Positions 11,093-46,650 of a DNA stretch of 64,000 nucleotides are shown piece after piece. The notes beneath the pieces are model-generated. The model saw nothing but the letters and a program-made list of their open reading frames with translations, was not told where the DNA came from and ran no database searches. Within the stretch, counting starts at the first letter, position 1; each line of letters begins with the position of its first letter. The stretch lies in NCBI RefSeq assembly GCF_024138125.1, contig NZ_CP099993.1, forward strand, positions 372,001-436,000, in the 5' to 3' direction. The translations under genes and the position numbers were made by a program. The stretch is from Halorussus salilacus. GTDB lineage: Archaea > Halobacteriota > Halobacteria > Halobacteriales > Haladaptataceae.

Positions 11093-11136
11093 AGTGCTCC
11101 GTCAGGGATTTGAACCCTGGTCCTTGCCGTGAGAGG
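11093..11136. other. attL: 44-base direct repeat of the tRNA-Glu 3' end
   Basis: All 44 bases are identical to 46574-46617, the 3' half of the tRNA-Glu(CTC) gene including T-arm and anticodon stem. Identity stops at 11137. The duplicate marks the left junction of the integrated element, with the intact tRNA kept at the right junction. Confidence 0.85.
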
Positions 11137-18343: not shown

Positions 18344-18558
18344 AGCCTCCCGCTCGGGTTCGGTCGCCGCCTATTTGAGTGCTATTGACACGCAATGATA
18401 TGTGTGATATCGTCTGTTTTGGAACTACGGGATGACGGCCCATTCGTGAAGAACCGTGGCAAAATGGATACTGGATAGTACGAGAGGCCTTAGCACCATT
18501 ACGGTACATATTTCAGGTATGAATACTATCCCAGTTACACATAACCAATAGCTCAAAT

Positions 18559-20268: not shown

Positions 20269-20347
20269 GGGGATTGTGGAATGTCTGGTCTCCGAACTTT
20301 GCTCTCCAATGAATGGTTTTATGTACTAAGTATATCGTGATTCATCT

Positions 20348-21025: not shown

Positions 21026-21149
21026 CTGACTGTTTTGCCGAAGTGGGATGATGAGAATTAGCCAAAACAGCGTGTGATTAATACAGAGAAGCACAAGATT
21101 CAGGTATGAACCCTGAAGATGGTCTTACAATCGCATCTAATTACGATAT

Positions 21150-21944: not shown

Positions 21945-21984
21945 TACTTAAAAAACAAGAGTTGAAATTAAATTCGTGTAGCCT

Positions 21985-22695: not shown

Positions 22696-22697
22696 CG

Positions 22698-24896
22698 TTA
22701 GAAGTCTCCCAGTTCGATTTGGACGGGGCGTTTCGGGACGAACTCGTTATCGTAGTCCAGCCGGTCGAGAACGGCCGCTCGAACGTCGTCACCGGAGTCG
22801 TAGATATGAACCGTGCAATTCGCGTCTTCGATTTCCTGGACTGTCTGCTGGGACACGTCACCGTCTGGATCGTATAGGTAGAGGTCATCGTACCGGACGC
22901 AGAACTCAGAGACGGGGCCTGCCATTGCGTCAGTCGCCACGGCGGAGGGAGCATCGGTCCACCATTCGTAGAGTCCGCCGTTATCAAGCGTCCCAATTTC
23001 GGCCACAGGGAGATCATAAATCTGCTCCCAGAGGTCTGGACATTCACCACCGAGGTAGTCCTCAACGGTTTCGACCTGTGTGAGTTCTTCAGTCGCCGGT
23101 GTTGCAACGAGGAGTTTCGGGAGGTCTTCCTCGAATTCATCATAGAATCGCCTCATGTTGTGGAATCCACGTCGCCGATTCCGGTTGTTGGCCCGGAACA
23201 CCGCAACTTCGATACCTAAGTCCTCGCAGATTGGGCAGTCGCACTCTCGCCACGGTTTGACGCGGAGAAGGTCTTCGTAGGCTTCGAGATACTCTTCATC
23301 GTCGATTACGTCGGCCGTCACGTAGTCTTCGACGACCCGTTGAATCTGGGCGAAGGTAGCGACTTCGTCCTCGCGGTCTTCGAGTGCTTCGACCGCGTCG
23401 AGGGTCTGTGGGAACTTGGTTTCGAAGATATTTCGTGCAGTTTCAACGAGTGATTCGTACTCGTCAAGCGTCGCGTCTGTGCCGTTGTCGCGGAGATGTT
23501 TGACGACTTGTCGCCGGAACGTTCGACTGAAATTGGCACGGAGCGCTCGGCTGTACTCGTAATCGTCCCGAAACTGTTGCTCGACGTCCCTAAGGAGTCG
23601 CTGGTCGTACTTCTCATCGAGGTGGTTGGCTTCTAAGTATGGGGGGAGGCCATCAAGCGCAACTGTGGCAGTTGCATACCACTCGCGTATCGCGTCAGCA
23701 ATTGATTCGCCATTATCGAATGCCCGTAGCGCGTGAAGCAATTCTTGACCGTGAAGTGCCTTCTCGATGCTCTCTTCGAGCGTATCCCTGGTCGTCCCGA
23801 ACCGGACCCGAATCGCGTCGTACCGCCGGTCACTACTGAGGTGATAGTTGTCGCCGCCGGTCCATGCTGCACGGAGCATACTCGCACTATCGAAGCTCGC
23901 CATTCCGGCCTGGCCCACGGTATCGAACGCGTCCGTCTTGGCGAACCCGAAGACGTGTGTATCGACTCGCATTGTCTCTGCCCGTTCGTGCGTCTTGACC
24001 GTATTTCCGACAGCCGTAACGATGTCACGTACGTCATCGACCGGACTTCCCGCAACGCCACCGATTCCGAGGTACTGATAGCCATGGTCGAGCACGTCCT
24101 GTGTCGCCCGTGCATAGGAATCCGCATCCCAGCCTTGGACGGCGACCATCAACCGGAACGAATAGTCCTTCGCATCGTACAACGCCTTCATCTCTGCAGC
24201 ATTCTCCAACGTCAAGTCGTACCGGAACTGGGTGTCGTTCTCGCGGTAGACCGCACGCGGATCATCAGCGAATCGGGTAAGTACCCCAGATAGTGATCCC
24301 TCGAAATCAGCTCGCTCGAATGGAATCGGTGAAGTCTCCCCATAAATCGTTTCGTCATACTCCGTGACGTATTCTGGCCAGTCCGTGGGCCACTCATCGA
24401 CCATGACATCGACGTTGTCAGCTATCGTCTCGGGGATGTCCGATGGGGTAAACCCACTCCGCTTGAACGCTCGCTTGTCGAGGTAGAGGCGACCTTCTTG
24501 GCCGGAGCCAAGTACGAGATGGTCGATCGTGACGCCTACCGTCACATCCATCTGCTCGTAGAAGTCGAGCATCTCCTGATTTCCGTACGGCGGAAACGGG
24601 AGAGACTTGTACCCCCACGCACCACAGTCGCTGATCGTTGGCAACCAATCCGGCAGATGCAAGCGTGACTCAGGATGGTAGACACCATAGGTCGTGAGGT
24701 TGTCAAGCTTGGTGTTGCTTTCTTCGACCTGTTCGCGGGAGATGAGGACTCCATCAATCGGCGTCGTGTCGTAGTCAAAGATGTCCCAGATGTACTGGAG
24801 CTCCCGCTCTGTTTTCGCTAACGTAGAGTGTTCGTCATGCAGAAAATCGTAATTCGCATCGACGTTATCATCCCACTCAGGAACATAGAAGCGCAC
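22698..24896 (-). CDS. dpdA: DpdA-like DNA transglycosylase
   Basis: A 732-residue TGT-superfamily protein. Asp90 lies in ISDCGAWGY, the nucleophile region is FDSASM (Asp336) after VFGFAKTDAFD, and the zinc ligands are CDCPIC (552-557) with His579. This set, the large size and the extra C-terminal 150 residues match DpdA, which swaps guanine in DNA for preQ0. The last 150 residues hold acidic domains of unknown role. A GTG at 24896 starts the gene; an earlier ATG is absent. It is co-transcribed with the DUF6884-like gene. Its preQ0 could come from host QueD, QueE and QueC. I am confident of the family and fairly confident of the DNA substrate. Confidence 0.82.
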   Translation of the reverse strand: MRFYVPEWDDNVDANYDFLHDEHSTLAKTERELQYIWDIFDYDTTPIDGVLISREQVEESNTKLDNLTTYGVYHPESRLHLPDWLPTISDCGAWGYKSLPFPPYGNQEMLDFYEQMDVTVGVTIDHLVLGSGQEGRLYLDKRAFKRSGFTPSDIPETIADNVDVMVDEWPTDWPEYVTEYDETIYGETSPIPFERADFEGSLSGVLTRFADDPRAVYRENDTQFRYDLTLENAAEMKALYDAKDYSFRLMVAVQGWDADSYARATQDVLDHGYQYLGIGGVAGSPVDDVRDIVTAVGNTVKTHERAETMRVDTHVFGFAKTDAFDTVGQAGMASFDSASMLRAAWTGGDNYHLSSDRRYDAIRVRFGTTRDTLEESIEKALHGQELLHALRAFDNGESIADAIREWYATATVALDGLPPYLEANHLDEKYDQRLLRDVEQQFRDDYEYSRALRANFSRTFRRQVVKHLRDNGTDATLDEYESLVETARNIFETKFPQTLDAVEALEDREDEVATFAQIQRVVEDYVTADVIDDEEYLEAYEDLLRVKPWRECDCPICEDLGIEVAVFRANNRNRRRGFHNMRRFYDEFEEDLPKLLVATPATEELTQVETVEDYLGGECPDLWEQIYDLPVAEIGTLDNGGLYEWWTDAPSAVATDAMAGPVSEFCVRYDDLYLYDPDGDVSQQTVQEIEDANCTVHIYDSGDDVRAAVLDRLDYDNEFVPKRPVQIELGDF

Positions 24897-26264: not shown

Positions 26265-26426
26265 TAGATACTTCTGTAAGATTATGGACTATCGGTCGTC
26301 CAGCGGACATTCGGTCGCCTAATCAGGAACTATCTTATTCAATAATAGTGAATCCTCTTATCAATAAGTAAAAGATAAGACGAGAATCGGTAGAAATATA
26401 ATACGTTTCTTCTTGTGCCGAATCAT

Positions 26427-29231
26427 ATGAGCCTTAGCAAAGGAGCGACGTGGAATCGGTGGGATTTACACGTTCATACTCCAGAGTCATTTGACCATCA
26501 GTTCTCGACGGATGCTGATGGGGAGTACGATGAGGTATGGGAAAGATACATCGATGAATTATCAGAAATTGACGATGTATCTTGTCTCGGTATCACTGAC
26601 TACTTCAGCATTGATGGATATGAACGAGTTCGTAAAGCGAAAGTGGAGGGACGACTCGAAAACCTGGATTTGGTCATCCCGAATATCGAATTGCGTATTG
26701 ACAACGTGGTTGTCGAACGTGGCAAAGAAAATAAAAGCGGGGCCTCACGCAGCATCGATCTCCACGTTCTATTCAGCGAAGATTTAGACCCAGACACGAT
26801 CCGCAAAAACTTCTTACACCGTGTGGACGCATTGAAGCCCAACGGAGAGGAAATCAGCCTCGCTCGTGAAAACATTGAGCGGCTTGGACGAGAACGCGGT
26901 ATCGAACACCTCGACGAACGCTCCGGCGATGATTTCCAAGTCGGATGTGAGCGCCTGAACGTCAAACGAGAGTCGGTATTCGATGCCCTCGACAAGGAAG
27001 TATTTGAGGGGAAGTATCTCATTGTTCTTGACGATACGACGTGGGATGATATCCCTTGGAAGACCCGAGCAGGCACGATGAGAGCCAATCTAGCCAGCCA
27101 AGCAGACGCATTTTTCAGTTCGAACGAGAACACACGCAATTTCCTTTTGGGCCAACATCCATCAAATACGCCGAAGGAAGTCATCGAGACGTTCGGCAGT
27201 CTCAAACCATGCATTCACGGCTCGGATGCGCATGATTTTGCCTCGCTGTGTGCCCCCGATGAGGACCGATACTGCTGGATTAAAGCTGAAACCACCTTTG
27301 AAGGCCTCAAACAAATAAAATACGAACCCGATGAGAGAGTGCGGATACAACCAGAAGATCCCCAAGGGCACGTACCTGGATACACCCCAGAACGGGTCGA
27401 AATCCGTGATGGGGAAGTTGAAGATGTGCTCACGGTTACAGATACTGATCTCCCCCTCAATCCCAACCTAGTAACAGTGATTGGAGGGAAGGGTGCCGGA
27501 AAAACAACACTTCTTGACCTGATTGCCAATTGTTTCGAAGACCGATGCCGCCGTGACAAGAGCGTGCCCATTGATGAAAACTCGTTCATTCAGCGCATCG
27601 AAGACGAAAACCCGGAGATACTGACTCGTCTAGAGTTTAATAGTGACAGTATTGACGGATTCCATAAACGAGTTCGTGATAAGGAAACCATCGAATCAGC
27701 ACAAGTAGAGTACCTTCCTCAAGGGAAAATATCCGAGTACTGCCGCAAGAAAGAAAAGTTGCACGAACAGATCATCAACCTCATAAAAAGCAGTGTCCGG
27801 CAATCGGATCGTAACCTGATGAACCGGTTCGACGAAAAGCTAGACGAGATCTCCGCAATTGAAGATGAGTTAGAGGACCTGACGAGGTCTCTTTACCAGT
27901 TTGAACCAGAGACAATCAACTCACGGATTCAGGATGCACGCGAGGAAGTGAAGACCGCAAAGGCCAAACTCGAAGATAAGAAGACGGAGATTGAGGAATA
28001 TCGGGAACAGCACGGAGACGAGCTACAGAATAACTCAGCGACAGACCTCCAAAATGAGATCGATTCTTTGGAAGGGGCCATTGAGTCACTCGAATCCTAC
28101 AAGGCCGAGATCGAAGACGTACTCAACGAGATTGACGGGTTGGAAGAGGTGAACGAAAGTCTTGCAAGTATCTCAATAGAGGCGGAAGAACGGGAACTCG
28201 GAAACTCCGTTTCCCCCATCGAGTATCGCCAACAACTCCGAAGCCTCCAAGAAATCAAAAACACGATCGACAAGCGGATTGATACGAGGGAAACAGAAAA
28301 AGAAGCAGTCGAAGCCGAACTCGAAAACCTCACCGACGCTGAAGAGAGACTTTCTGAACTACTGACTGAGAAACGTGATATCGAGTCCGACCTTGAGAAA
28401 AAGCATACGAGATTAGAGACTCTTCGAGAAAACAAGCAACAGATAACTAAACTACGAAAAAAGCGACGTGAACAGTTCAAACAATACGTTAGCGGGTTTG
28501 TAGCCCTAGAAAACGTCTACCAGCTAGTGATAGAGGAATTCAATCGAAATCAGGTCACGATTCTAGACGATGTTGATTTCTCCCCTCAAGTGACTTCTGA
28601 CGAATCACTATCTGAGCGTCTTCACGATTGTCTTGACGGTCGGCAGGTTAACGTTCAGCGGTTACAAGAGGCTCTCGCCAATCTTGACCAAGCTCTTGAG
28701 AAAGACTCCCCCGAGCGGGGAGAATACGTCGAGCGGTTCCTCGACAAGGTTGAGGGACTGAAACAATACCTCGTTTCAGATGTTGATGAACGGAAATTCG
28801 ATGAACTTCTGTATGATTCTTATCTCTCTTTGACTGAGGAGATTTACTTCCAAGGAACGAAGATGGAGGGTCTTTCCTTGGGACAGAAGGGAACGGTTCT
28901 TCTAAAAATCCTGCTTGCAGAAGGGTCAACGCCGCTGATAATTGATCAGCCTGAAGAGAATCTTGACAACCGGTTCATCTACAAAACGCTCAAAGACACG
29001 TTCCGCGAGGCGAAAAAACAGCGGCAGGTCATCATTGCAACCCATAATGCAAATCTCGTGGTGAACACCGATGCAGAACAAGTAGTCATTGCAAACTACG
29101 AGGAGAGCGAGATCAATTTCACTGCGGGCCCTCTTGAAAACCCCCAAATCCGTGATGAAGTCACCACCCTTCTTGAAGGCGGAAAGAAAGCATTCCGGTA
29201 TCGTGAGCAAAAGTACGGACTAACAGACTGA
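26427..29231 (+). CDS. TrlF-like defence protein: PHP phosphoesterase fused to SMC/ABC ATPase
   Basis: A 934-residue protein. The N-terminal PHP domain begins WDLHVHTPES (His15, His17), continues with GITDYFS, and has HGSDAHD near residue 265. Then comes an SMC-type ATPase split by a long coiled coil: Walker A GGKGAGKTT near 352, coiled coil about 440-700, signature LSLGQKG near 815, Walker B PLIIDQPEENLDN near 836, and the H-loop IIATHNAN. This is the TrlF architecture, linked to phage defence, where the ATPase is thought to sense nucleic acid and the PHP part to act as the hydrolase. An AATATAATAC box lies about 28 bases before the ATG. It stands alone. Confidence 0.82.
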   Translation: MSLSKGATWNRWDLHVHTPESFDHQFSTDADGEYDEVWERYIDELSEIDDVSCLGITDYFSIDGYERVRKAKVEGRLENLDLVIPNIELRIDNVVVERGKENKSGASRSIDLHVLFSEDLDPDTIRKNFLHRVDALKPNGEEISLARENIERLGRERGIEHLDERSGDDFQVGCERLNVKRESVFDALDKEVFEGKYLIVLDDTTWDDIPWKTRAGTMRANLASQADAFFSSNENTRNFLLGQHPSNTPKEVIETFGSLKPCIHGSDAHDFASLCAPDEDRYCWIKAETTFEGLKQIKYEPDERVRIQPEDPQGHVPGYTPERVEIRDGEVEDVLTVTDTDLPLNPNLVTVIGGKGAGKTTLLDLIANCFEDRCRRDKSVPIDENSFIQRIEDENPEILTRLEFNSDSIDGFHKRVRDKETIESAQVEYLPQGKISEYCRKKEKLHEQIINLIKSSVRQSDRNLMNRFDEKLDEISAIEDELEDLTRSLYQFEPETINSRIQDAREEVKTAKAKLEDKKTEIEEYREQHGDELQNNSATDLQNEIDSLEGAIESLESYKAEIEDVLNEIDGLEEVNESLASISIEAEERELGNSVSPIEYRQQLRSLQEIKNTIDKRIDTRETEKEAVEAELENLTDAEERLSELLTEKRDIESDLEKKHTRLETLRENKQQITKLRKKRREQFKQYVSGFVALENVYQLVIEEFNRNQVTILDDVDFSPQVTSDESLSERLHDCLDGRQVNVQRLQEALANLDQALEKDSPERGEYVERFLDKVEGLKQYLVSDVDERKFDELLYDSYLSLTEEIYFQGTKMEGLSLGQKGTVLLKILLAEGSTPLIIDQPEENLDNRFIYKTLKDTFREAKKQRQVIIATHNANLVVNTDAEQVVIANYEESEINFTAGPLENPQIRDEVTTLLEGGKKAFRYREQKYGLTD

Positions 29232-29303: not shown

Positions 29304-30185
29304 TTACGATGATTCCTCCCCCTTCCTTCCGTCGTAGAACGCCGAACAGTGCCGGATGGCGTTCCGAATCGTGCGCTTCCGGTAGTCCGGCCGGTCCCGC
29401 CACTTGTCACGAGTAAGCCCGCTCTGATCGAACAGCCGCTCAATCCGCTGCGGGTCCCCGCCCGTCCAGAACGCGAGCAACGTACACAAAGCTTGGTCCG
29501 CCTCCGAATGGCTATCGTACCCCAACGTATCGCCCTCCCACAGCGCCCGGAACTTCTCGCCGTTCGCCGCATTCTGCGCCTTCTCGAGTAACGCCTCGTC
29601 CGACAAGGACAGCGGTTCCGACGGTGGTGCTCCCTCCACGTCGGAGGTGGGCTCCTCCGACCCAATGTACTCCTCGTGGACCGCCTGTAGTGCGTCGTTC
29701 CGTTGCTCGACCTCTGTCGGGGCTCCCGGGACGCGGTCGCCCGTCACGGTGAAGTACCGATTCTCGTCGTACAGTTCCAACTGGTCCGCCCGGTTGCCCC
29801 CGGACGGCACGGTACCTTCGACGATGACGTGGAACCCGGTGCCGCTGGGGCTGTACTCCGTGTACGAATCGAGGGCCCGCAGGACCTCGATGGCCCAGTC
29901 CTCGACCTCGCCCGTTGCCGGCTCCCGGCAGGCATCGAGATCGACGCCCGCGTACGGATCGTCCGCGGTGAACACGAACCCGATGCCGTCGACACCGGCC
30001 GTGGCCCGGGCATACGCCTGCGCGGTGGCGTAGTCGCTCCACGTGTCCGTGTCGCGTACACTGGCGTAGCCACCACCGGCAGGATCGACGGGCACCTTCG
30101 TCGCCTCGCCGTCCCGGTCCTCGGTGCGCCAGCACACCCACTGGGGTCTTCGTTGCAAGACCGCGGGAATCTGCGTGTCAGCCAT
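29304..30185 (-). CDS. PrimPol-type replication protein (NrS-1-like)
   Basis: A 293-residue primase-polymerase-like protein, as in archaeal plasmids and phage NrS-1. The N-terminal core shows a VPVDPAGGGYASVRDTDTWS strand, GFVFTADDPYAGVDLDACRE with the metal-binding acidic pair, and YSPSGTGFHVIVEG with the His motif. A helical-bundle tail follows (HSEADQALCTLLAFWTGGDP, then RKRTIRNAI). It probably primes or starts replication of the excised element. It is last in a run of minus-strand genes that begins with the Ubl system. A 10-bp inverted repeat (GCCATCACGA at 30181-30190 and its complement at 30212-30221) covers the start codon and may regulate translation. Confidence 0.75.
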   Translation of the reverse strand: MADTQIPAVLQRRPQWVCWRTEDRDGEATKVPVDPAGGGYASVRDTDTWSDYATAQAYARATAGVDGIGFVFTADDPYAGVDLDACREPATGEVEDWAIEVLRALDSYTEYSPSGTGFHVIVEGTVPSGGNRADQLELYDENRYFTVTGDRVPGAPTEVEQRNDALQAVHEEYIGSEEPTSDVEGAPPSEPLSLSDEALLEKAQNAANGEKFRALWEGDTLGYDSHSEADQALCTLLAFWTGGDPQRIERLFDQSGLTRDKWRDRPDYRKRTIRNAIRHCSAFYDGRKGEESS

Positions 30186-30351
30186 CACGAACCACCACCC
30201 ACCCCTGGGGGTCGTGATGGCGACCGCGCAGTCTTAGCGGTCGGCCAAGACCCCGGTTCGAATGAGGCGCACCACGCAAAGGCCGCACCTGCACAACGTC
30301 GGTGGAGCGCTGCACGTCTCGTCCGGCGGCTGTACCACTCACAGTCGGACG

Positions 30352-30675
30352 TCAGTCCTCCCGGCGGCGCTCACGGTCCGCAAAGAGGTCTTCCATCAGG
30401 TGGGCGTGGACCTGCAACCGGGTCGCATCCTCGTCACGGACGCCACTGAGGCCAGCCAGCGCAACCCGGAGGCCGAGGCCGATGAGGATGAGCACTGTTG
30501 CGAGGAACAGGCTCGCGCCAAAGACGGCGACGACTTGCCAGATGATAGCCAACACCGTCGCGGCAAGCACCACGTCGGCGTACGTCTCCGTCAGCACCGC
30601 GAGAATCGCCAGAAAGACGAGTCCCGTGAACCCCAGCTTGAGCAACAGTGCGGCGTCGACCGGGTCGGCGGTCAT
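30352..30675 (-). CDS. Small membrane protein of the Ubl operon
   Basis: A 107-residue protein with two to three membrane segments (about residues 9-30, 32-50 and 53-75) and a charged C-terminal tail ending RERRRED. No motif is seen. It lies 25 bases downstream of the RING-like gene, so it belongs to the same transcript. It could anchor a complex to the membrane; this is inference from position. Confidence 0.6.
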   Translation of the reverse strand: MTADPVDAALLLKLGFTGLVFLAILAVLTETYADVVLAATVLAIIWQVVAVFGASLFLATVLILIGLGLRVALAGLSGVRDEDATRLQVHAHLMEDLFADRERRRED

Positions 30676-30700
30676 TGCGGCTCCCCACCGGACACGGCCA

Positions 30701-31264
30701 TCATCGCTTCTGCTCCGCGACCGCTTTCACCCGCAACTGGTCCAGCACCGATTGGACGTCGGTGTCCGCACCGTAGAGTTGGTGGCCGACGTGAAGCGCC
30801 TCTCGGCCCCGATCGGAGAGGGTGCCGTCATCGGCAAGGTAGCCCTGCTTGACCACGGTATTCGCTACGGCATCGATGTCGACGGCGGTGATCTCCCCGG
30901 CCTGGGTCGTCACGTCAAACAGGTCGGCAAACGTCATCGTCTCATGCTGGAGGAACACGAGCGTCAGGAACGTCCGCTTGTCCATGTCGAACCGGCGGCG
31001 GGCGCACAGCGGACAGACATGCTGCCGGCTCAACCGGATTTCGCACCGCGTACAACAGATGAGTTCACAGTCACAGCACCGGTAAACGTCCCCACTTCCG
31101 CTGATCGGGGCGCCACAGGTGCAGAAGGGCACCGCGGTCTGTTCGACGCGTTCGGTCAGGTCGTCGAGGTCGGTCGTCTTTTCCTCCTGTTCGAAGACGG
31201 GACTCCCCCGTGGTCCGAACGTTCGGACCGTCGTTTTCGTAAAGTCAGTATGTTCGTCGGTCAT
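30701..31264 (-). CDS. RING-like zinc protein with winged-helix tail (candidate E3)
   Basis: A 187-residue protein. Residues 48-87 hold four Cys pairs: C48/C50, C63/C66, C71/C74 and C84/C87, the last as HVCPLC. That is the spacing logic of a binuclear treble-clef (RING-type) finger. The C-terminal half (residues 95-180) is a winged-helix-like region with MTFADLFDVT, then GYLADDGTLSDRGREALH. In ubiquitin systems RING fingers bring E2 and target together. The gene shares a transcript with E2- and E1-like genes, so an E3-like role is attractive but unproven. A plain zinc-ribbon DNA-binding protein is the main alternative. Confidence 0.6.
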   Translation of the reverse strand: MTDEHTDFTKTTVRTFGPRGSPVFEQEEKTTDLDDLTERVEQTAVPFCTCGAPISGSGDVYRCCDCELICCTRCEIRLSRQHVCPLCARRRFDMDKRTFLTLVFLQHETMTFADLFDVTTQAGEITAVDIDAVANTVVKQGYLADDGTLSDRGREALHVGHQLYGADTDVQSVLDQLRVKAVAEQKR

Positions 31265-31327
31265 TGTCTCAGAGTCGGTCTCGGTGTCGCGGTTCGGTCT
31301 ATGTGTGCATGGTCTGTCGGCAGCGGG

Positions 31328-31630
31328 TTACCGGTCCTCCCGGCGGGTCGACGTCGAGCACCAGCCGCGGACGAGGTGCCGGACCAGCTGTGCCCCCAAG
31401 TAGGGCCGCGTATCAGCCGGGCAGAACACCTTCTGGCCGTTCGCGACCCAGACTTGGTGGCCCCGGCAGATCACCCGGCCACACAGCTGGCACGTGGCGA
31501 GGCAGTCGGCACAGAGGCGGGTTGCACAGCCCTGGTACTGGCAGACCCCGGCGAACTCGCCGACATGCCCACAGTCCAGTAACCGCCCCTCAGGGTCCGC
31601 GGTCGTGCGCATCGGTGGTTGGTCTGGCAT
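31328..31630 (-). CDS. Small Cys/His-rich zinc protein (B-box/RING-like)
   Basis: A 100-residue protein with C20/H22, C30/C35, C40/C43, C47/C50, C55/H58 and C70, enough ligands for two or more zinc ions. The order DCGHVG, LCADCLATCQLCG, ICRGH is close to a B-box or other treble-clef finger. It starts nine bases after the small membrane gene's stop, within the Ubl run. It may act with the RING-like protein that follows. I do not recognise a named family. Confidence 0.55.
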   Translation of the reverse strand: MPDQPPMRTTADPEGRLLDCGHVGEFAGVCQYQGCATRLCADCLATCQLCGRVICRGHQVWVANGQKVFCPADTRPYLGAQLVRHLVRGWCSTSTRREDR

Positions 31631-31639
31631 GACTTGGGA

Positions 31640-31933
31640 TCACCGTCGATAGTCCTCGATCGATCCGGTATCCAGATCCATGTCCAGGTCCGTCCGGCGT
31701 GGTTGCGTCCGGGACGGGCGACTATCATCAGGACTGTGCGACTGCTGACCCTCGCTCCCGATCAGGGCTGTCAGCAATCCGACCACCGCGAGTCCGAGCA
31801 GTCGCACCAGCACACCTCCAATCGTGAGCAGGCCCAGTTGGATGAGCAACAGGCCCAGTGGTTCAACCAACCCGACCACGAGCACGCCACACAGCACTGC
31901 CAGGACCCCGATAAGCAAGACGCCGATGGTCAC
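31640..31933 (-). CDS. Small membrane protein after the JAB-E1 gene
   Basis: A 97-residue protein with a long hydrophobic region (residues 3-60, two membrane segments) and a disordered, polar C-terminal tail ending in TGSIEDYRR. Translation starts at a GTG at 31933, 37 bases downstream of the JAB-E1 stop. No family is recognised; its position puts it in the Ubl operon. Confidence 0.5.
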   Translation of the reverse strand: MTIGVLLIGVLAVLCGVLVVGLVEPLGLLLIQLGLLTIGGVLVRLLGLAVVGLLTALIGSEGQQSHSPDDSRPSRTQPRRTDLDMDLDTGSIEDYRR

Positions 31934-31970
31934 CCACCTCCCGTTACCGTACCGGCGATGTCGCCAGGAG

Positions 31971-33470
31971 TCATGGCCGCACCTGCTGGCTTATCCGGGT
32001 GAGCCACTGTACGAGGCGCTGACCTGGACGACGGGTCCCGGCCACTGGAGTCCCGCCATCGGTCGCCGTATCACCTCCGGAGATGGCCAGGTCGAGATCG
32101 CTGTCGGCCGGGTCACCCAGGTCACGGTCCGCGGCAGGGTCCCGGTCGCCCTGGCCCAGCAAGCCCTCCTCGCCGCAGGTCGGACAGCTCGAATCCCGGT
32201 GCGTCACCAGTTCCTGCAACTGCGTGTCCAGTTCCTCGTACCGCACCATGTCCGGCGGCGATGCGTACCCGGCCGCGAGCCGGGCGAAGACGGCCGCCGC
32301 CTGGCTTGCAATCGTACCGTTGAGCGTGACGACCGCGGGGTCCGGTGCCAGCGCCGACTCCTCGATGTAGCCCTCCGCGACCTCGGCATCCAGTTGAGCG
32401 GTCGAGAGCTGTTCACGCCGAGCCCGCTCGGGATCCGCCCGGTCGAGACACGCATAACACGCGCTTGCACCGGGCGCGACCAGTTGGACGATCCCCTCGA
32501 TGGCGGTAACCTGCTCCTCGTCGGCGGTCCGGATAACGGTGCCCGCATCGATGTAGTACCGCAGGTGCCGGACACAGTACTGGTTCAGGACCGACCGGGT
32601 CGAGACCTGATCGACGGTGCCGACCACCACGTCACAGTCCGTCAAGGCGTCTGTCGCGTCCTCAACGGGGTCGGGCACCGTCTCCACCGTCAAATCCAAC
32701 CCGGTGTCGTGAAGCTGTTGGGCCAGGACGGTCACTTTCTGCCGCCCCACGTCCCAGACCGTTGCCCCGGTCAACCGGTTGAGGTTCGACCGTTCAACCG
32801 TGTCCGGGTCGATGAGAACCAGGTGCTGGACCCCGAGCCGCGCCAACTGTTTCGTGAGGCTGAAGCCGAGCCCACCGGTCCCGACCACGGCCACGGTCGT
32901 GGCCGCGAGCCGTTGCTGGCCCGGCTCAGTCAACAGCCGGAGCGACCGATCGTGGAGGTCGGCATCGATCGCCGCCGTGTCGGTCGCCGTCGCCACCGGC
33001 GGGTCAAGCCGCCAGTTCCCCACCACGTCGACTGGGACCGGATGAAACTGTTCGGCCGCCGCCTCGAACACGGTGGTCTCGACCTCCCGGCGGCCCACCA
33101 CGCTGAACCCGAAATCGGTCTCTGGATACAGGCCGTGCAACCAGTTCGTGTACCGATTGATTGCCGTGATGTCCTGCCCGGAGAACCCCGCCGTGTCGCT
33201 GAACGGATGGGAATGCATGAGCAACGGGCGGTAGCCGTGACGCACACAGGTCCCGAGCTGGTCCCGTTCAAAGGCCGGGGCCGGCCGACAGGCCGTCCGG
33301 CGCTGGGTCCGCATCGCCTCGTCCGGCACCGCCACGATATCTGCCACCACCCAGCGGTCCCCCGACCGTGTGCAGAACCCGTACGCACACCGTTCCTGGG
33401 CATCCTCCTGGAGCAGGTGCTCGCGGAGCGTCTGCATCTGCCCGGCCGACACGACGAGTCGGTCAGGCAT
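31971..33470 (-). CDS. JAB peptidase fused to E1-like (ThiF) activating enzyme
   Basis: A 499-residue two-domain protein. Residues 1-160 form a JAB/MPN metalloprotease: a Glu in the VADIVAVPDE region, then MHSHPFSDTAGFSGQD supplying H-x-H and S-x-x-D, with one extra residue in the spacer. Residues 185-420 are an E1/ThiF adenylation domain with VVGTGGLGFS (nucleotide loop), LIDPDTVERSNLNR, and paired CYAC and CPTC for zinc. It would both trim the Ubl tail and activate its Gly-Gly end with ATP. The gene overlaps the upstream E2-like gene by eight bases, so the proteins are made together. The C-terminal 60 residues are a disordered linker and a helix. Confidence 0.88.
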   Translation of the reverse strand: MPDRLVVSAGQMQTLREHLLQEDAQERCAYGFCTRSGDRWVVADIVAVPDEAMRTQRRTACRPAPAFERDQLGTCVRHGYRPLLMHSHPFSDTAGFSGQDITAINRYTNWLHGLYPETDFGFSVVGRREVETTVFEAAAEQFHPVPVDVVGNWRLDPPVATATDTAAIDADLHDRSLRLLTEPGQQRLAATTVAVVGTGGLGFSLTKQLARLGVQHLVLIDPDTVERSNLNRLTGATVWDVGRQKVTVLAQQLHDTGLDLTVETVPDPVEDATDALTDCDVVVGTVDQVSTRSVLNQYCVRHLRYYIDAGTVIRTADEEQVTAIEGIVQLVAPGASACYACLDRADPERARREQLSTAQLDAEVAEGYIEESALAPDPAVVTLNGTIASQAAAVFARLAAGYASPPDMVRYEELDTQLQELVTHRDSSCPTCGEEGLLGQGDRDPAADRDLGDPADSDLDLAISGGDTATDGGTPVAGTRRPGQRLVQWLTRISQQVRP

Positions 33471-33882
33471 CCGACGCCTCCCTGCCGGGTGCGTCCGCGG
33501 TCAGCAGATCGGCTAGCATGACGTCGGTCTCCTGCCGCAAACTCGACCGGGCCGGATCCCAGTCGGTCGGCCAGTAGATGATCGGGTCCCCTAACTGCCC
33601 GCGGGCCAACCAGTGGCCGGACGACAGGATGTGCCGCGGGACACGCCCGTTCAGCCGGAGCTCCCCGGGCAACACCCATTTCGGCGGATTCCGTGGGTGA
33701 TGCTCCGAGAGCTCGATCCGGATATCGATGGTCCGTGGCTCCCATCCCTCCGGCAGTTCGACGGCGTCCAAGACGATGGTCTGCTCGTCGGCCGCGGGCC
33801 GTACGTCGTACTCGCGCTGCAGGGCGCGGTGCTCGCGGTGCAACAACGCCCGGAGCACCCGGTGCATCCGGCGGTCGGTCAT
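33463..33882 (-). CDS. E2-like protein lacking the catalytic cysteine (UEV-like)
   Basis: A 139-residue UBC-fold-like protein. It has the E2 landmarks YP/HP..PP in SEHHPRNPPKWVLPG, an NG.v..H turn (LNGRVPRHILSSGHW), and the W-x-P before the C-terminal helix (WPTDWDPARSSL). There is no Cys anywhere in the protein, and PIIYWP takes the place where the Cys would be. It therefore looks like an inactive E2 variant, comparable to eukaryotic UEV partners. It overlaps both neighbours (ATGA with the other E2, eight bases with JAB-E1). It may pair with the Cys-bearing E2. Confidence 0.68.
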   Translation of the reverse strand: MTDRRMHRVLRALLHREHRALQREYDVRPAADEQTIVLDAVELPEGWEPRTIDIRIELSEHHPRNPPKWVLPGELRLNGRVPRHILSSGHWLARGQLGDPIIYWPTDWDPARSSLRQETDVMLADLLTADAPGREASDA

Positions 33883-34262
33883 CGGTCCTCGGGCTCCTGC
33901 CCGATCCGGAATTTGGCCGGGTCGCTCAGCGATTCCATCATCTGCCGGGTCGTCGAGACCAGGGTGTGCCGCCGGGGTTCCCACCCGAACCGGACACACC
34001 ACCGGTCCCAGCCATCGAACCGACTGGGTTTCTTGCGCGTGATGTCCTGCTCACCCTGGTAGGCCATCTGCGCCGGGACGTGGACCGCCGGTGCCGACGC
34101 CGGATAATCCGGCGGCAGCTCGTACCGCAAGGTGCTGACCTGTGGTGTCCAGTCCGACGGATACGTGAACCGGACCAGGTCAACAAGCCGGTCCGACCGG
34201 CGACGGACCGTGTACGCCTCGGTGAGCGCGGCCAGCTCCTTGTGCAGGCGGTGGTCGTTCAT
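33879..34262 (-). CDS. E2-like conjugating protein with Cys89
   Basis: A 127-residue UBC-fold-like protein. After LPPDYPASAPAVHVP (the E2 YP..P strand) come a variable loop and GWDRWCVRFGWEPRRHTL, where Cys89 lies five residues before the W-x-P, as in E2 active sites. Length and order fit prokaryotic E2-like families. It would take the Ubl from the E1 domain as a thioester. ATGA overlaps on both sides (with Ubl upstream and the Cys-free E2 downstream) show tight co-translation. Without a structure the fold call rests on these landmarks and the operon. Confidence 0.72.
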   Translation of the reverse strand: MNDHRLHKELAALTEAYTVRRRSDRLVDLVRFTYPSDWTPQVSTLRYELPPDYPASAPAVHVPAQMAYQGEQDITRKKPSRFDGWDRWCVRFGWEPRRHTLVSTTRQMMESLSDPAKFRIGQEPEDR

Positions 34263-34495
34263 TGCCCGGCCGCTCCCCCGAAGTAGGTGTCCTTCGGCAT
34301 GAACGCGACCCGGGCGTCCTCCGGGACGTGTTTGATCTCGTCGCGGTCACTCAGCGTCACGATACTCCCATCCTCGTCCGCATAGGTCGCCAGGTCGTTC
34401 TCGGCCGCGCCCACCTGCGCCTTCACTTCCGCGATGGTGGTGTCCTCATCCAGTTCGTAGGTCTCGCCGTCCGCCTCGATGTGTGTTTGCCCCAT
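34259..34495 (-). CDS. Ubiquitin-like modifier with processable Gly-Gly tail
   Basis: A 78-residue beta-grasp-like protein: HIEADGETYELDEDTTIAEV resembles the first hairpin and helix, and SDRDEIKHVPEDARVAFMP the last strands. It ends YFGGAAGQ: a Gly-Gly followed by four residues, as in ubiquitin precursors that need a peptidase, and the JAB domain for that is in the same operon. The ATG at 34495 was chosen because a GGAG-type ribosome site lies about ten bases before it. A GTG at 34642 would add a disordered 49-residue tail, and remains possible because it would close the gap to the gene before. The stop overlaps the next start (ATGA). Confidence 0.75.
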   Translation of the reverse strand: MGQTHIEADGETYELDEDTTIAEVKAQVGAAENDLATYADEDGSIVTLSDRDEIKHVPEDARVAFMPKDTYFGGAAGQ

Positions 34496-34678
34496 TGCTG
34501 GTTCTCCCCCCGATTGGGTTTCGTTCCCCGCCACAGGAACATCGTCAGGGCCCTGTGCACTCCCCTCGGTGCTGGCTGGGCCGACCCCACGGTCACCGCG
34601 GTCCGGAATCCCTTCGTCCACCAGCGGTGATTCCGAAACCACAGAGACTGGATCTCTGCGGTCGGTCAGCGACCGATT

Positions 34679-34813
34679 CTACCACCAGTAGTGCCCGGGA
34701 AGCTCGACCGGTGCCGTGAACGCCGTTGAGGCGTACGGGTTCTCCGTGTCCCACTCCCCCCACCCGGTCGTCGGGTACGGATCTTGCTCCCGTGGGCTGT
34801 GTGTGCCTGTCAT
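34679..34813 (-). CDS. 44-residue small protein at the head of the Ubl operon
   Basis: A short frame from the ATG at 34813, rich in Pro, Thr, Gly and aromatic residues, beginning MTGTHSPREQDPYPTTG and ending LPGHYWW. The codon use is haloarchaeal-like. A TATA-like GGTTTATG (minus strand, 34843-34850) lies about 33 bases before the ATG. It could be a leader peptide or a tiny operon protein. No family is recognised. Confidence 0.4.
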   Translation of the reverse strand: MTGTHSPREQDPYPTTGWGEWDTENPYASTAFTAPVELPGHYWW

Positions 34814-34942: not shown

Positions 34943-35530
34943 ATGGAGCCGGATCAGACGGAACCACTCGATTGGCTTGCCACAGTTATCAGCGGATGCG
35001 CGAACCTGCCCCGGTTAGCACTGCTACTTGGCTTCTCGCAGGGCTACACAGCACAGGAAGTCACAGATATACTCGAGATCTCGCGGCCCGGCGTCCAAAA
35101 GAACATCGAGCGGATGATCGAAGCCGACCTCGTCTATCGACCCGCAGCCGATGATGCACCAACATACGCATTAACCCCGATTGGGGAATTCTTTGCCAGC
35201 TTTATCGATGACCACGGACCCGTCCTCCTGACCGCCCTCACCATCCTGCGCGACTCTGAGGCGACCATCCAGCAACAACTGGAGGACAGCCCCGTCGCCG
35301 ACGGAATGAGCCAGACAGAGCAAGACCGATTGGTCCACACCCGGAAATGGCAGGAAACAAACAACCAAATCCACGACCTACTTGAACGACACACCCACGA
35401 CCGTCCCGGTGCGGCCGAGAGCTCGATAGACCGGGCCTTCGCGACCCGCTCCCCTTTCTCCCGTGAGGAATTCGGTGACATCCTCGATGAAGTCAAGGAG
35501 GACGACGTGGACGAGACGAACGAGGAATGA
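34943..35530 (+). CDS. Winged-helix regulator divergent from the Ubl operon
   Basis: A 195-residue protein with an ArsR/MarR-like helix-turn-helix at about residues 20-60: GYTAQEVTDILEISRPGVQK then NIERMIEADLVYR. A long helical C-terminal part follows. It resembles the regulator at 25812-26264. It is transcribed away from the Ubl operon across a 130-base gap that carries paired GTTAAC sites, so it probably controls both directions. Its stop overlaps the next start (ATGA), tying it to the 508-residue protein. Confidence 0.7.
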   Translation: MEPDQTEPLDWLATVISGCANLPRLALLLGFSQGYTAQEVTDILEISRPGVQKNIERMIEADLVYRPAADDAPTYALTPIGEFFASFIDDHGPVLLTALTILRDSEATIQQQLEDSPVADGMSQTEQDRLVHTRKWQETNNQIHDLLERHTHDRPGAAESSIDRAFATRSPFSREEFGDILDEVKEDDVDETNEE

Positions 35531-40758: not shown

Positions 40759-41967
40759 ATGACGCGACACACGGATTCACCGAAGCCATCACAGACGGTC
40801 CAGCCCACGGCAAGGAGAACGGCGGACGGATGGCCGCTCGAGTACGACATCGAAGATGAATTCAGTGTTGTCCCGGACCCGGCACTCGAGTACCTCAATG
40901 AACGCCAAGCCGACGAGTATCATAGCTACCGGCTCCGGTTATTGACGTGGTTAGTCACGGCGGGGAAATCGCCAGCCGACAATGAGGGCCTCGCGCTCCG
41001 GACGGCAAAGAACTACGCCAGTCGCATGGATCAGTTCTATCGATGGCTCTGGGAGTACCATGGCTATACCACACGAGTTCCACACGAGCGTGCCGACCAG
41101 TATGTGACGAGCCTTGCCCGAGACACCCTCTGCCAGACTACTGGCACCCCGTACAGTGAGTCCTCGAAACGGAAACTCGTCAATGCCGTCTCCAAACTGG
41201 CTGAGTGGCGCCACCTCGAATTTGGGGATGACCGTTGGGAGCCGGACAGAACGTTTAGCGAGACCGCTGCTAACCACGCGGACGTGTTCACCACCGCGGA
41301 ACGGCACCGCCTCCGCGAGGGCGTCCTTGAGTTTGAGACCATCCCGGCATACAACAATCTCTCGCCGCCCGAGCGTGATCGGTGGAAGGCCTATCTGGCT
41401 CAACGGCTTGGCAAGCCCAAAGCCGAGGTCTCCCCTCAAGACTGGACGGTACAGAACACCAGTTGGAAATTCCCTTCCTTGATTCGGACCGCACTTGATG
41501 CCGGACTCCGCCCGTGTGAAGTTGAACGGGCAGAGACGGATTGGGTGCGCGCCGAGAAAGAAACACTGTATATTCCGAAGGAGGATGCCTCGAAGAATCG
41601 GGAGAACTGGGAGGTCGCCTTACGGCCCGATACGGTAATGGCCCTCCAGAAGTGGCTCGAACAACGCACGAACCAGACGAAGTATGACGGCCGGAAAGCA
41701 CTCTGGCTCAACCGACAGGCAAACCCATACACGTCCAACACGTTGAATCACTGGCTCCGGAAACTGTGTGACGACGTCGGCATCGACCGCGCGAACCGGA
41801 ACCTTACATGGTACAGTATCCGGCACAGCGTTGGAACGCTAATGGTGAGCAACGGCACCCTCGCGGAGGCCCGTGACCAACTCCGCCACAAATCTACGGA
41901 ATCAACCATGCAGTACGTCCATACGACACCTGACGACCGGCGAAAGACACTCGAAAAAATGGGCTGA
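40759..41967 (+). CDS. Tyrosine recombinase/integrase (internal copy)
   Basis: A 402-residue phage-type integrase. The N-terminal SAM-like DNA-binding region covers residues 50-150; the catalytic part shows ALDAGLRPCEVERAE (Arg I), WYSIRHSVGTLM (His-x-x-Arg region) and LRHKSTESTMQYVH with the Tyr nucleophile. It is a distant relative of the integrase at 45307-46410, with the same layout and shared phrases such as IPKE and LRHKS. No att-like repeat was noticed beside it. It may belong to an older element that merged with this one, or serve excision. Confidence 0.85.
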   Translation: MTRHTDSPKPSQTVQPTARRTADGWPLEYDIEDEFSVVPDPALEYLNERQADEYHSYRLRLLTWLVTAGKSPADNEGLALRTAKNYASRMDQFYRWLWEYHGYTTRVPHERADQYVTSLARDTLCQTTGTPYSESSKRKLVNAVSKLAEWRHLEFGDDRWEPDRTFSETAANHADVFTTAERHRLREGVLEFETIPAYNNLSPPERDRWKAYLAQRLGKPKAEVSPQDWTVQNTSWKFPSLIRTALDAGLRPCEVERAETDWVRAEKETLYIPKEDASKNRENWEVALRPDTVMALQKWLEQRTNQTKYDGRKALWLNRQANPYTSNTLNHWLRKLCDDVGIDRANRNLTWYSIRHSVGTLMVSNGTLAEARDQLRHKSTESTMQYVHTTPDDRRKTLEKMG

Positions 41968-45306: not shown

Positions 45307-46410
45307 TCATCCGAGTCGATCCAGCGCGTCCTGGCGATCTTCGACGGGCGCTTGGTCGTACTTCATCGTCGTCTCCGGACTCTTGTGCCGGAGTTGTGCC
45401 TGTGCTGCGGCCAGGTCCTCCTCCCGGGTCATATACGTGCCGGTCGAGTGCCGGATCGTGTACCAGCTCATCTGCCGGTGCTCGTAGTCGATGCCAGCAA
45501 TATCGCACAGGTCGTGGAGCAACCGGCGGAGTGGCGTGGACCGGAATGGGTTCGCTTCTCGGGTCAGCCAGAGTTCATCACGCCCGTCGTACAGTTCGTA
45601 GTTCTGGCGCTGGTCCAGCCACCGGTCAAGTGCGTCGAGGGTTTTCGTACTGAGGCCGACCCGCCAGTGCCCCTCGTTTTTCGAGGATTCTTCTTTGGGA
45701 ATCCGCAGGAGTCCGTTCTCAATGTCAACCCACGATGTGACGGCTCGTTTGACTTCGATAGGGCGGAGGCCTGCATCGAGACTGACCCCCACGAGGCTCG
45801 GGATGCGCCAGTTGTTCGCCCGCTCCCAATCGGCCGGTCCGACGTCTGCCTTCGGTTTGTGGAACTTTTGGGCGAGGTAGGCCGTCCACCGGTCACGTTC
45901 CTCGGGCGTGACGTTGTTGTAGTGTGGGATGCTCCCGTATTCTAACGATGCTTCCCGGATCTGCCGCCGCTCCGGTTTCGTGAGGTAGTCGCGCGGTGTC
46001 GTTGTCCCGCTGTTCGACGAAAAGCGGATGGCCGGGTCCCATTCGTCATCGCCCCGTTCATGGGCCCGCCATTTGAACAGCATCTTGACGGCCTTCTGGC
46101 AGCAGTCCCGGTGGGCATCACTGTAATCGGCCATCGCCAACTGTTGCATCCACTCGTCCGCGTGGTCGTGCGTGACCGTGGTCGTATACTGCTCGGTGGA
46201 TTCCCAGACGAACCGGTAGAAGTGGTCCATCCGATAGCTCCGGGCCGTGACCGTGGTCGGCGCATACCCATCTGCCTGGTCGGGATCTTTGCCGAACGCC
46301 AACAACCAGCGGAGGCAGTCTTCGCGTTCGGCCCGGTAGTCGACGCGTTGGCGCGGGCCGAGCCGGTCTGCGGATGGCTGGGGAACGACCGGGAAGTCGC
46401 TCAGGTCCAT
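45307..46410 (-). CDS. Tyrosine recombinase/integrase of the element
   Basis: A 367-residue integrase. Catalytic landmarks: SLDAGLRPIEVKRA (Arg), MSWYTIRHSTGTYM (His-x-x-Arg region), and LRHKSPETTMKYDQ with the Tyr. The gene begins 164 bases from the att site in the tRNA-Glu gene, the usual place for the enzyme that put the element there. The gap holds a 13-base motif repeated at exactly 60-base spacing, possibly its arm-type binding sites. It is a paralogue of the enzyme at 40759-41967. Confidence 0.88.
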   Translation of the reverse strand: MDLSDFPVVPQPSADRLGPRQRVDYRAEREDCLRWLLAFGKDPDQADGYAPTTVTARSYRMDHFYRFVWESTEQYTTTVTHDHADEWMQQLAMADYSDAHRDCCQKAVKMLFKWRAHERGDDEWDPAIRFSSNSGTTTPRDYLTKPERRQIREASLEYGSIPHYNNVTPEERDRWTAYLAQKFHKPKADVGPADWERANNWRIPSLVGVSLDAGLRPIEVKRAVTSWVDIENGLLRIPKEESSKNEGHWRVGLSTKTLDALDRWLDQRQNYELYDGRDELWLTREANPFRSTPLRRLLHDLCDIAGIDYEHRQMSWYTIRHSTGTYMTREEDLAAAQAQLRHKSPETTMKYDQAPVEDRQDALDRLG

Positions 46411-46573: not shown

Positions 46574-46617
46574 AGTGCTCCGTCAGGGATTTGAACCCTG
46601 GTCCTTGCCGTGAGAGG
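46574..46617. other. attR: 44-base direct repeat within tRNA-Glu
   Basis: Identical to 11093-11136. It covers the 3' end of the tRNA gene up to the anticodon stem; the tRNA therefore stays whole after integration. Confidence 0.85.
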
Positions 46618-46650
46618 GCAAGATGATTGGCCGGACTACACCAACGGAGC
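46576..46650 (-). tRNA. tRNA-Glu (anticodon CTC)
   Basis: Acceptor stem GCTCCGT pairs with ACGGAGC. The anticodon arm is TTGCC, loop CTCTCAC, GGCAA, giving anticodon CTC. The T-arm has the standard GTTCAAATC loop. The discriminator base is A and no CCA is encoded. The gene is the attachment site of the element; its promoter side faces the right chromosomal flank. Confidence 0.92.

What the first reader, a model, noticed from the sequence alone, without database searches (positions are those of the whole stretch)
29304..34813. A complete prokaryotic ubiquitin-like conjugation operon in an archaeal integrative element
One minus-strand run holds, in order, a small protein, a Ubl with a Gly-Gly tail, an E2 with a Cys, an E2-like protein without Cys, a JAB-E1 fusion, two small membrane proteins, two Cys-rich zinc proteins and a PrimPol. 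The core four genes overlap by 4-8 bases. Known bacterial Ubl operons (Bil-type and others described by comparative genomics) have Ubl, E2, E1 and JAB, but adding a paired E2, RING-like zinc proteins and membrane parts in a haloarchaeal element looks unusual and possibly undescribed. A defence or plasmid-control role is inference.
Basis: partly seen in the sequence, partly recalled or inferred. Interest (0 to 1): 0.92.

Follow-up and report, generated by a model that had tools for sequence, protein, structure and literature searches.

The report
Haloarchaeal Bub-type ubiquitin-like conjugation cassette
A mobile DNA element in a salt-loving archaeon carries a compact ubiquitin-like protein-tagging kit, related to the recently described bacterial Bub kits but with a cysteine where most of those have a serine, a second inactive E2 and a likely membrane anchor; what it tags, and whether it fights viruses, is unknown.

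Summary
Minus-strand genes 34,495-31,971 encode a beta-grasp Ubl, an E2 with one cysteine (Cys89), a Cys-less E2-like paralogue and a JAB-E1 fusion, overlapping by 4, 4 and 8 bases, inside a 35.5-kb element bounded by 44-bp tRNA-Glu repeats. The JAB-E1 and E2 profiles best match solved Citrobacter BubCD and BubB, so this is a divergent Bub/Iyer "type 6e" system, not an undescribed class. Ten further haloarchaeal loci form one E1 clade with it (100/100); 8 of 390 other sampled haloarchaeal genomes carry it. Differences from most bacterial Bub loci: the E2 active-site residue is Cys in all 11 haloarchaeal systems, mostly Ser (WxRWSRH) in bacteria; the Ubl signature is P...FG, not GG; four loci add a Cys-less E2; ten of 11 have a membrane protein after E1 or a hydrophobic E1 tail. 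The zinc proteins and PrimPol are a separable element module, found without close Ubl/E1 genes in two genomes; the PrimPol occurs in 40% of sampled genomes. They are not shown to be E3s. Defence is the likeliest role (Dpd-, GmrSD-, BrxD- and Ppl-like neighbours) but untested.

The parts
34679..34813 (-). 44-aa W-rich small protein (SM), first gene of the run; a 62%-identical homologue sits directly upstream of ZN1 in a locus without Ubl genes
   Evidence: L122
34259..34495 (-). Ubl, 78 aa, beta-grasp fold, tail ...PKDTYFG|GAAGQ (bar = inferred JAB cleavage site)
33879..34262 (-). E2 (UBC fold), 127 aa, single cysteine Cys89 at the E2 active-site column
33463..33882 (-). E2-like paralogue without any cysteine (UEV-like), 139 aa
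31971..33470 (-). JAB-E1 fusion, 499 aa: JAMM residues E26, H86, H88, S97, D100; E1 adenylation residues GxGGxG 197-202, D221, D223, N229, R232, K245, D287; Zn ligands C338, C341, C429, C432
31640..31933 (-). small membrane protein TM1 (two predicted TM segments, C-terminal tail ..SIEDYRR)
31328..31630 (-). Cys/His-rich zinc protein ZN1 (11 invariant Cys/His in six homologues)
30701..31264 (-). ZN2: eight invariant Cys (RING/FYVE-like spacing) plus a conserved C-terminal part that looks wHTH-like
30352..30675 (-). second small membrane protein TM2
29304..30188 (-). NrS-1-like PrimPol (HBD domain PF22763); generic haloarchaeal element gene
34943..35530 (+). divergent wHTH regulator sharing the 130-bp AT-rich intergenic region with the operon; homologues next to the Ubl operon in L028, L032, L033, L034
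11093..11136 (.). attL: 44-bp direct repeat of the tRNA-Glu 3' part
46574..46617 (.). attR: same repeat inside tRNA-Glu(CTC) 46575-46650
45307..46410 (-). tyrosine integrase beside the tRNA

Best explanation
A mobile Ubl conjugation and deconjugation cassette of the Bub / type 6e kind. Inferred steps: (1) the JAB domain trims the Ubl precursor after the conserved Phe-Gly, removing GAAGQ here; (2) the E1 domain adenylates that glycine; (3) because the E1 has no invariant cysteine except four zinc ligands, the Ubl probably passes directly, or through a non-Cys E1 residue, to Cys89 of the E2 as a thioester; (4) the Cys-less E2-like protein acts as a UEV-type partner that orients E2 or acceptor, as Mms2 does for Ubc13; (5) a membrane protein made after E1, or a hydrophobic tail on E1 in relatives, holds the machinery at the membrane, where it tags proteins; (6) JAB can remove the tag; (7) a divergent wHTH protein controls expression. 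The cassette is carried as cargo, most likely for defence, in an integrative element, beside that element's own replication module (ZN1, ZN2, PrimPol). Shown here: the folds of Ubl and E2, the catalytic residues, the homology, gene order and element boundaries. Not shown: any conjugation, the targets, or protection from viruses.
For: Profile hits to solved Citrobacter BubCD over JAB and E1 together (2.9e-41, residues 4-398) and BubB (4e-4). AF2 model of the window E2 (pLDDT 85.5): top Foldseek match BubB 9eae_C (E 6.5e-4, TM 0.68), then many UBC E2s. AF2 Ubl (pLDDT 83): beta-grasp; best TM-score among listed hits 0.70, to an E. coli multi-ubiquitin protein. JAMM and E1 residues invariant in 12 proteins including rhizobial loci. 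P, F, G the only invariant residues of 16 Ubls. E2 column Cys in 11/11 haloarchaeal systems. E1 C-terminal hydrophobic stretch in five loci; separate TM protein after E1 in the window and five others; one (L030) has neither. Element carries DpdA-like, DpdC-like, GmrSD, BrxD-like and Ppl-like genes; the same DpdA-like gene lies near the Ubl operon in L007 and on its contig in G364 (L119).
Against: Most bacterial relatives lack Cys at the E2 site, so Cys89 need not be essential. No E1 nucleophile is identified. Hydrophobic E1 tails in L005, L006, L029 and L031 are only moderately hydrophobic (15-residue Kyte-Doolittle 1.8-2.5). Defence is inferred from neighbours only; [quoted passage not shown] L030 has neither TM gene nor hydrophobic tail and lies among metabolic genes. 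The window's E2L sits on a very long branch (2.1), so its role may differ from the other Cys-less paralogues.
Confidence: 0.66

Rival explanations
1. The whole ten-gene run is one functional unit for the element's own maintenance: the Ubl pathway modifies replication proteins (PrimPol, HerA-like ATPase, ZN2) and so controls element replication or copy number, rather than defending the host.
For: Contiguous same-strand run in the window; ZN2 and the close E1 co-occur in 4 of 391 genomes where 0.14 is expected (hypergeometric 1.9e-6; 5.6e-5 without the window's own genome), and lie about 10-17 kb apart on the same chromosome in G143 and, across the contig ends, G295.
Against: ZN1-ZN2-PrimPol occurs without a close E1 in G132 and G362; six of the 11 Ubl systems have no ZN1, ZN2 or PrimPol hit within the stretch fetched (L005/L006, L007, L028, L029, L030, L031); PrimPol is in 156 of 392 genomes. 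A shared element type explains the co-occurrence. Genomes were not corrected for relatedness.
Confidence: 0.17
2. ZN1 and/or ZN2 are RING-type E3 ligases of the pathway, making it a full E1-E2-E3 system.
For: ZN2 has eight invariant Cys (C-x-C-x12-C-x2-C-x4-C-x2-C-x9-C-x2-C) and sub-threshold PDB matches to TFIIH p44, FYVE and RNF4 RING domains (E 0.02-0.2); adjacent to E1-TM1 in the window; a ZN1 fragment follows E1-TM in L004.
Against: No significant RING match in Pfam or PDB searches; both proteins occur without close Ubl/E1 genes; ZN2 also has a conserved wHTH-like part, suggesting DNA binding.
Confidence: 0.12
3. The pathway works through oxyester or direct chemistry like bacterial Bub, and Cys89 is not the acceptor.
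For: E1 lacks a conserved non-zinc Cys; the homologous column is Ser in Citrobacter BubB (alignment) and in the WSRH group of bacterial relatives. That Bub uses oxyesters is recalled from Ye et al. 2026 (cited in PMC13373217; text not readable here).
Against: Cys is kept in 11 of 11 diverged haloarchaeal E2s and in Saccharopolyspora, while each Cys-less paralogue has something else there.
Confidence: 0.15
4. A sulfur-carrier (ThiS/MoaD-like) system for cofactor or tRNA thiolation.
For: ThiF-family E1 and a beta-grasp partner.
Against: UBC-fold partners, JAB protease fused to E1, no rhodanese or cofactor genes in the element, no conserved GG tail, and a better match to BubCD than to MoeB/ThiF.
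Confidence: 0.03

Closest known systems
Bub (bacterial ubiquitination-like) pathways: Citrobacter BubB and BubCD (PDB 9ea4, 9ea5, 9eae, 9eav); PMC13373217 counts 544 operons in bacteria
   Same: JAB fused N-terminally to E1; separate small E2-fold protein as best structural match; Ubl gene first; plasmid or element location; HTH-type regulator beside the operon
   Different: E2 site Cys instead of Ser; FG Ubl tail instead of the EG-type tail common in the WSRH group; an added Cys-less E2 in some; E1 keeps four Zn cysteines, and C338/C341 are missing in the aligned part of Citrobacter BubCD; membrane protein instead of DUF6527
Iyer, Burroughs and Aravind 2006 operon type 6e (PMC1779556): polyUbl + inactive E2/RWD + JAB-E1 + Zn protein; annotated 'multiubiquitin - E2/UBC - ThiF - DUF6527' in Mesorhizobium, Rhizobium, Deinococcus
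   Same: gene order Ubl-E2-(JAB-E1); Ubl carrying FG in rhizobia and Deinococcus; Prok-E2_E family (PF14462) matches 12 of 17 E2s in the joint alignment, though not the window E2 itself
   Different: haloarchaeal E2 has Cys; single-domain Ubl; no DUF6527 or phosphotransferase seen in the haloarchaeal loci
Saccharopolyspora spinosa locus L037 (JAB-E1, Cys-bearing E2, short Ubl with YG near its end, membrane protein after E1)
   Same: E1 placed as sister to the haloarchaeal clade (92/87); Cys at the E2 site; membrane gene after E1
   Different: about 33% E1 identity; no second E2 seen
Bil (BilABCD) and type II CBASS Cap2/Cap3
   Same: Ubl/E1/E2/JAB logic on mobile DNA
   Different: separate or E1-E2-fused architectures; no JAB-E1 fusion of this kind; only partial E1-domain hits in PADLOC/NCBIfam
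Eukaryotic Ubc13-Mms2 and Vps23 UEV
   Same: active E2 with a Cys-less E2 variant; weak profile match to Vps23 UEV (0.002-0.004)
   Different: no evidence here of heterodimer or chain formation

Membership tests
Bub / type 6e | JAB domain fused to the N-terminus of an E1 domain | tested here: met
   BubCD match over both domains, 2.9e-41; JAMM and adenylation residues invariant
Bub / type 6e | adjacent small E2-fold protein homologous to BubB / Prok-E2_E | tested here: met
   profile 4e-4 to BubB; Foldseek top hit BubB; PF14462 in 12 of 17 members of A3, best 1e-10
Bub / type 6e | beta-grasp Ubl encoded upstream of E2 and E1 | tested here: met
   AF2 pLDDT 83, ubiquitin-like matches
Bub / type 6e | E2-fold protein lacking a catalytic cysteine (Iyer 2006 wording for 6e) | tested here: not met
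   Cys89 present; Cys in 11/11 haloarchaeal systems. The second E2-like protein does lack it. Hence 'variant', not plain member
Bub / type 6e | DUF6527-type Zn protein (C-x3-C-x35-38-H-x2-C) | tested here: not met
   no such gene seen in the inspected haloarchaeal neighbourhoods
Bub / type 6e | oxyester intermediates (recalled from Ye et al. 2026) | not testable with these tools
   biochemistry needed; paper not held
Bil (BilABCD) | two-domain ISG15-like Ubl with separate E1 and JAB genes | tested here: not met
   78-aa single-domain Ubl, JAB-E1 fusion
type II CBASS | E1-E2 fusion (Cap2) with a CD-NTase | tested here: not met
   no E1-E2 fusion and no nucleotidyltransferase among the element genes scanned; PADLOC E1-E2 hits cover the E1 part only
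RING E3 (ZN1/ZN2) | significant RING-domain similarity | tested here: inconclusive
   ZN2 eight-Cys pattern, best PDB E 0.02; ZN1 none
UEV | UBC fold without active-site Cys, partner of an active E2 | tested here: inconclusive
   homology to Cys E2s (E 7e-11 to the L028/L036 E2), no Cys; fold of E2L not modelled; partnership untested
tRNA-targeted integrative element | direct repeat of tRNA 3' end at both ends plus integrase | tested here: met
anti-virus defence system | protection against a virus | not tested
   only gene context

The most novel reading that the evidence does not exclude
Haloarchaea carry a distinct Cys (thioester) branch of the otherwise mostly serine-type Bub pathway in which an active E2 and an inactive UEV-like E2 work as a pair, possibly building Ubl chains, on a membrane-anchored E1, with the zinc protein ZN2 as an E3.
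Probability: 0.13. Interest if true: 0.87.

Novelty: new variant of a known kind. Interest (0 to 1): 0.6.

Why it matters
If Cys89 forms a thioester, the same homologous E2 scaffold would exist in a Cys and a Ser form, making the thioester/oxyester switch in Ubl pathways directly testable by single-residue swaps. [quoted passage not shown] The recurring pairing of an active and a Cys-less E2 gives a simple prokaryotic setting for asking what UEV-type proteins do. It also corrects the search signature: Phe-Gly rather than Gly-Gly.

Tried and rejected
E1 as a single-sequence query in genome contigs found nothing; the profile query used generic ThiF motifs and returned mostly unrelated ThiF/MoeB loci. 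Viral contigs and phage records gave only partial E1-domain matches, so a viral origin is not supported. Pfam, NCBIfam and PADLOC gave no family for the window's Ubl, E2 or E2L alone. The reading that the whole run is one Ubl operon was rejected because ZN1-ZN2-PrimPol occurs alone and PrimPol is widespread. I considered the Cys-less E2s to be one orthologous group: three (L006, L029, L031) are a clade (100/99), but the window's is on a long unresolved branch, so separate origins remain possible. Looking for an empty attachment site in congeners was inconclusive: the right flank and tRNA are conserved, two congeners have an integrase homologue at the same site, and the left flank was not found within the fetched stretch. 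Key Bub papers (Ye 2026, Gong 2025) and Burroughs 2011 are not held, so absence of haloarchaeal members from them could not be checked.
Full report
OBSERVATION. The core four genes overlap by 4, 4 and 8 bases (34259-34262, 33879-33882, 33463-33470). They lie in a 35.5-kb element bounded by a 44-bp repeat of the tRNA-Glu(CTC) 3' part (11093-11136 and 46574-46617), with a tyrosine integrase beside the tRNA at 45307-46410 and a second at 40759-41967. G+C changes near both ends.

WHAT THE PROTEINS ARE. Searched alone, only the JAB-E1 (ThiF, 4e-46) and the PrimPol (NrS-1 HBD, 2e-22) reach Pfam cut-offs. With haloarchaeal relatives aligned, identities become clear. The JAB-E1 profile hits Citrobacter BubCD at 2.9e-41 across JAB and E1, ahead of all eukaryotic E1s, MoeB and ThiF. 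The E2 profile hits Citrobacter BubB (4e-4) and then the Vps23 UEV domain (0.002-0.004); Pfam Prok-E2_E matches 12 of 17 members, though not the window E2 itself. An AlphaFold model of the window E2 (five sequences, pLDDT 85.5) finds BubB first (E 6.5e-4, TM 0.68), then a long list of UBC E2 enzymes. The Ubl model (three sequences, pLDDT 83) is beta-grasp, with FERM-F1, ubiquitin-variant, PB1 and SUMO matches and an E. coli multi-ubiquitin protein at TM 0.70; no Foldseek E-value is below 0.001, so fold rather than family is shown. The Cys-less paralogue was not modelled; it is homologous to the Cys E2s by sequence (7e-11 to the L028/L036 E2).

CATALYTIC RESIDUES. Across 12 JAB-E1 proteins, including two rhizobial ones, the JAMM residues E26, H86, H88 and D100 are invariant and S97 nearly so; G197, G199, G200, G202, D221, D223, N229, R232, K245 and D287 of the adenylation site are invariant; the only invariant cysteines are C338, C341, C429 and C432, which look like a zinc set. 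So no E1 catalytic cysteine is evident. Across 16 Ubls (14 haloarchaeal, two rhizobial) only P67, F72 and G73 are invariant; several Ubls end exactly at FG, others have 1 to 7 more residues. The conserved end is therefore FG, and the second Gly of the window's FGG is outside the signature. Bradyrhizobium and Deinococcus Ubls also carry FG; among the relatives with WSRH-type E2s the end is EG in Oscillatoria, Methylocystis and (before a short extension) Pla86.

THE E2 SITE. In an alignment of 26 E2 proteins the column of window Cys89 is Cys in all 11 haloarchaeal systems and in Saccharopolyspora; Ser in Phenylobacterium, Oscillatoria, Methylocystis, Pontibacter and Citrobacter koseri, within the motif WxRWSRH or close variants of it (also visible in the Pla86 ORF), and in the more divergent Mycolicibacterium and Rhodococcus proteins; His, with WFSWH, in Mesorhizobium, Rhizobium and Deinococcus. 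Four haloarchaeal systems have a second E2 without Cys (window, L006 with its near-copy L005, L029, L031). In the last three the order is Ubl - Cys-less E2 - Ubl - Cys E2 - JAB-E1; in the window it is Ubl - Cys E2 - Cys-less E2 - JAB-E1. In the E2 tree the three form a clade (100/99) while the window's is on a long unresolved branch. I recall, and could not check, that Ye et al. 2026 (cited in PMC13373217) report Bub chemistry through oxyesters; if so, the haloarchaeal Cys marks a chemical difference at a homologous site.

DISTRIBUTION. At E <= 1e-70, nine of 391 haloarchaeal genomes (eight besides the window's own) have a close JAB-E1; seven other same-genus genomes of that sample have none. 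With the Natrinema and Salinigranum plasmids, 11 distinct systems are used here; Natribaculum longum (L005) is a near-copy of N. luteum (L006). Their E1s form one clade (100/100), with Saccharopolyspora as sister (92/87) and the FG-tail rhizobial/Deinococcus group and the WSRH bacterial group outside.

MEMBRANE LINK. After E1 the window, L004, L028, L032, L033 and L034 have a small membrane protein; those of the window, L032 and L033 end in related acidic tails (SIEDYRR, TIDDFRT, AIEDQYRQ). L005, L006, L007, L029 and L031 instead end E1 in a hydrophobic stretch (15-residue Kyte-Doolittle maximum 1.8-3.1 against at most 0.5 in the others). L030 has neither. The near-exclusive pattern suggests the TM protein serves E1; it is suggestive, not proof.

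THE REST OF THE RUN. ZN1, ZN2 and PrimPol form their own module, in that order, in G143, G295, G364, G132 and G362; G132 and G362 have no close E1. In G362 (L122) a homologue of the 44-aa SM (62%) sits just upstream of ZN1 with no Ubl genes between, so in the window the Ubl cassette appears nested in an existing SM-(TM)-ZN1-ZN2-PrimPol run. In L004 a truncated ZN1 follows E1-TM. PrimPol relatives occur in 156 of 392 genomes. ZN2 and close E1 do co-occur more than expected (4 genomes against 0.14; 1.9e-6, or 5.6e-5 without the discovery genome); a shared element type is the simplest cause, and relatedness was not corrected for. ZN2 has eight invariant Cys and sub-threshold RING/FYVE matches; ZN1 has 11 invariant Cys/His and no such match. 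An E3 role is not shown.

CONTEXT AND FUNCTION. The element carries a GHKL ATPase gene, BrxD-like, two DpdA-like, DpdC-like, GmrSD and Ppl-like genes. The DpdA-like gene at 22698-24896 has 54-55% homologues near the Ubl operon in a Salinigranum plasmid (L007) and on the same contig in G364 (L119). Defence cargo is thus likeliest. [quoted passage not shown] A divergent wHTH gene flanks the operon here and in L028, L032, L033 and L034, a plausible regulator, as CapW, CapH+CapP or CapK+CapS are for bacterial Bub (PMC13373217).

LITERATURE. Iyer et al. 2006 (PMC1779556) defined type 6e: JAB fused N-terminally to E1, one to three Ubl repeats, a Cys-less E2/RWD protein and a zinc protein, in bacteria. 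[quoted passage not shown] E2s of Caldiarchaeum came later. I found no paper describing this cassette in haloarchaea, but the main Bub papers and Burroughs 2011 could not be read.

VERDICT. A real, intact, conserved Ubl pathway; a new variant (haloarchaeal, Cys-E2, sometimes with a paired Cys-less E2, probably membrane-linked) of the known Bub / type 6e kind. The core assignment is strong; the chemistry, UEV role and membrane role are inferences; defence is an inference from neighbours only.

Noticed in passing
own genome G000:C3 about 70-73 kb (L002: 3807-1222, minus): A second, distinct Bub-like locus (putative Ubl 109 aa, E2-like 163 aa, JAB-E1 588 aa) on a plasmid of the same strain, near-identical to one on a Haloprofundus halobius plasmid (L011), where it precedes a DEAD/DEAH helicase gene.
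   Followed up: partly
window 15259-24896: Dpd/BREX-like cluster: BrxD-like ATPase, TGT (DpdA-like), DpdC-like DUF6884 protein, 732-aa DpdA-like protein; same set on the contig of G364 (L119 4971-11078).
   Followed up: partly
window 26415-29231: 938-aa protein with an N-terminal 'DLHVHTPES' PHP-like start and an SMC-like ATPase part, Ppl-like in PADLOC (7e-32).
   Followed up: no
window 40759-41967 and 45307-46410; 10935-10958: Two different tyrosine integrases in one element, and a third partial att copy (24 bp) outside the left end: possible composite or tandem integration.
   Followed up: partly
L116 6590-10596, L120 6844-10911, L121 9523-13206: Integrase - small protein - TM - ZN1 - ZN2 - PrimPol blocks look like a compact haloarchaeal integrative element family.
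   Followed up: partly
L035 6652-8583 (G070): A haloarchaeal JAB-E1 with a bacterial-type E2-like partner (FSWH motif, no Cys), separate from the Cys clade.
   Followed up: no
L004 9485-10281: In the Natrinema plasmid the TM gene and ZN1 after E1 look frameshifted or truncated, and the annotation calls the opposite strand there.
   Followed up: no
E1 Tyr368 (window 31971-33470, minus): A Tyr in the putative crossover loop (GYI/PYV) is invariant in all aligned JAB-E1s and present in Citrobacter BubCD (GYIT); role unknown, possible E1 nucleophile or binding residue.
   Followed up: no
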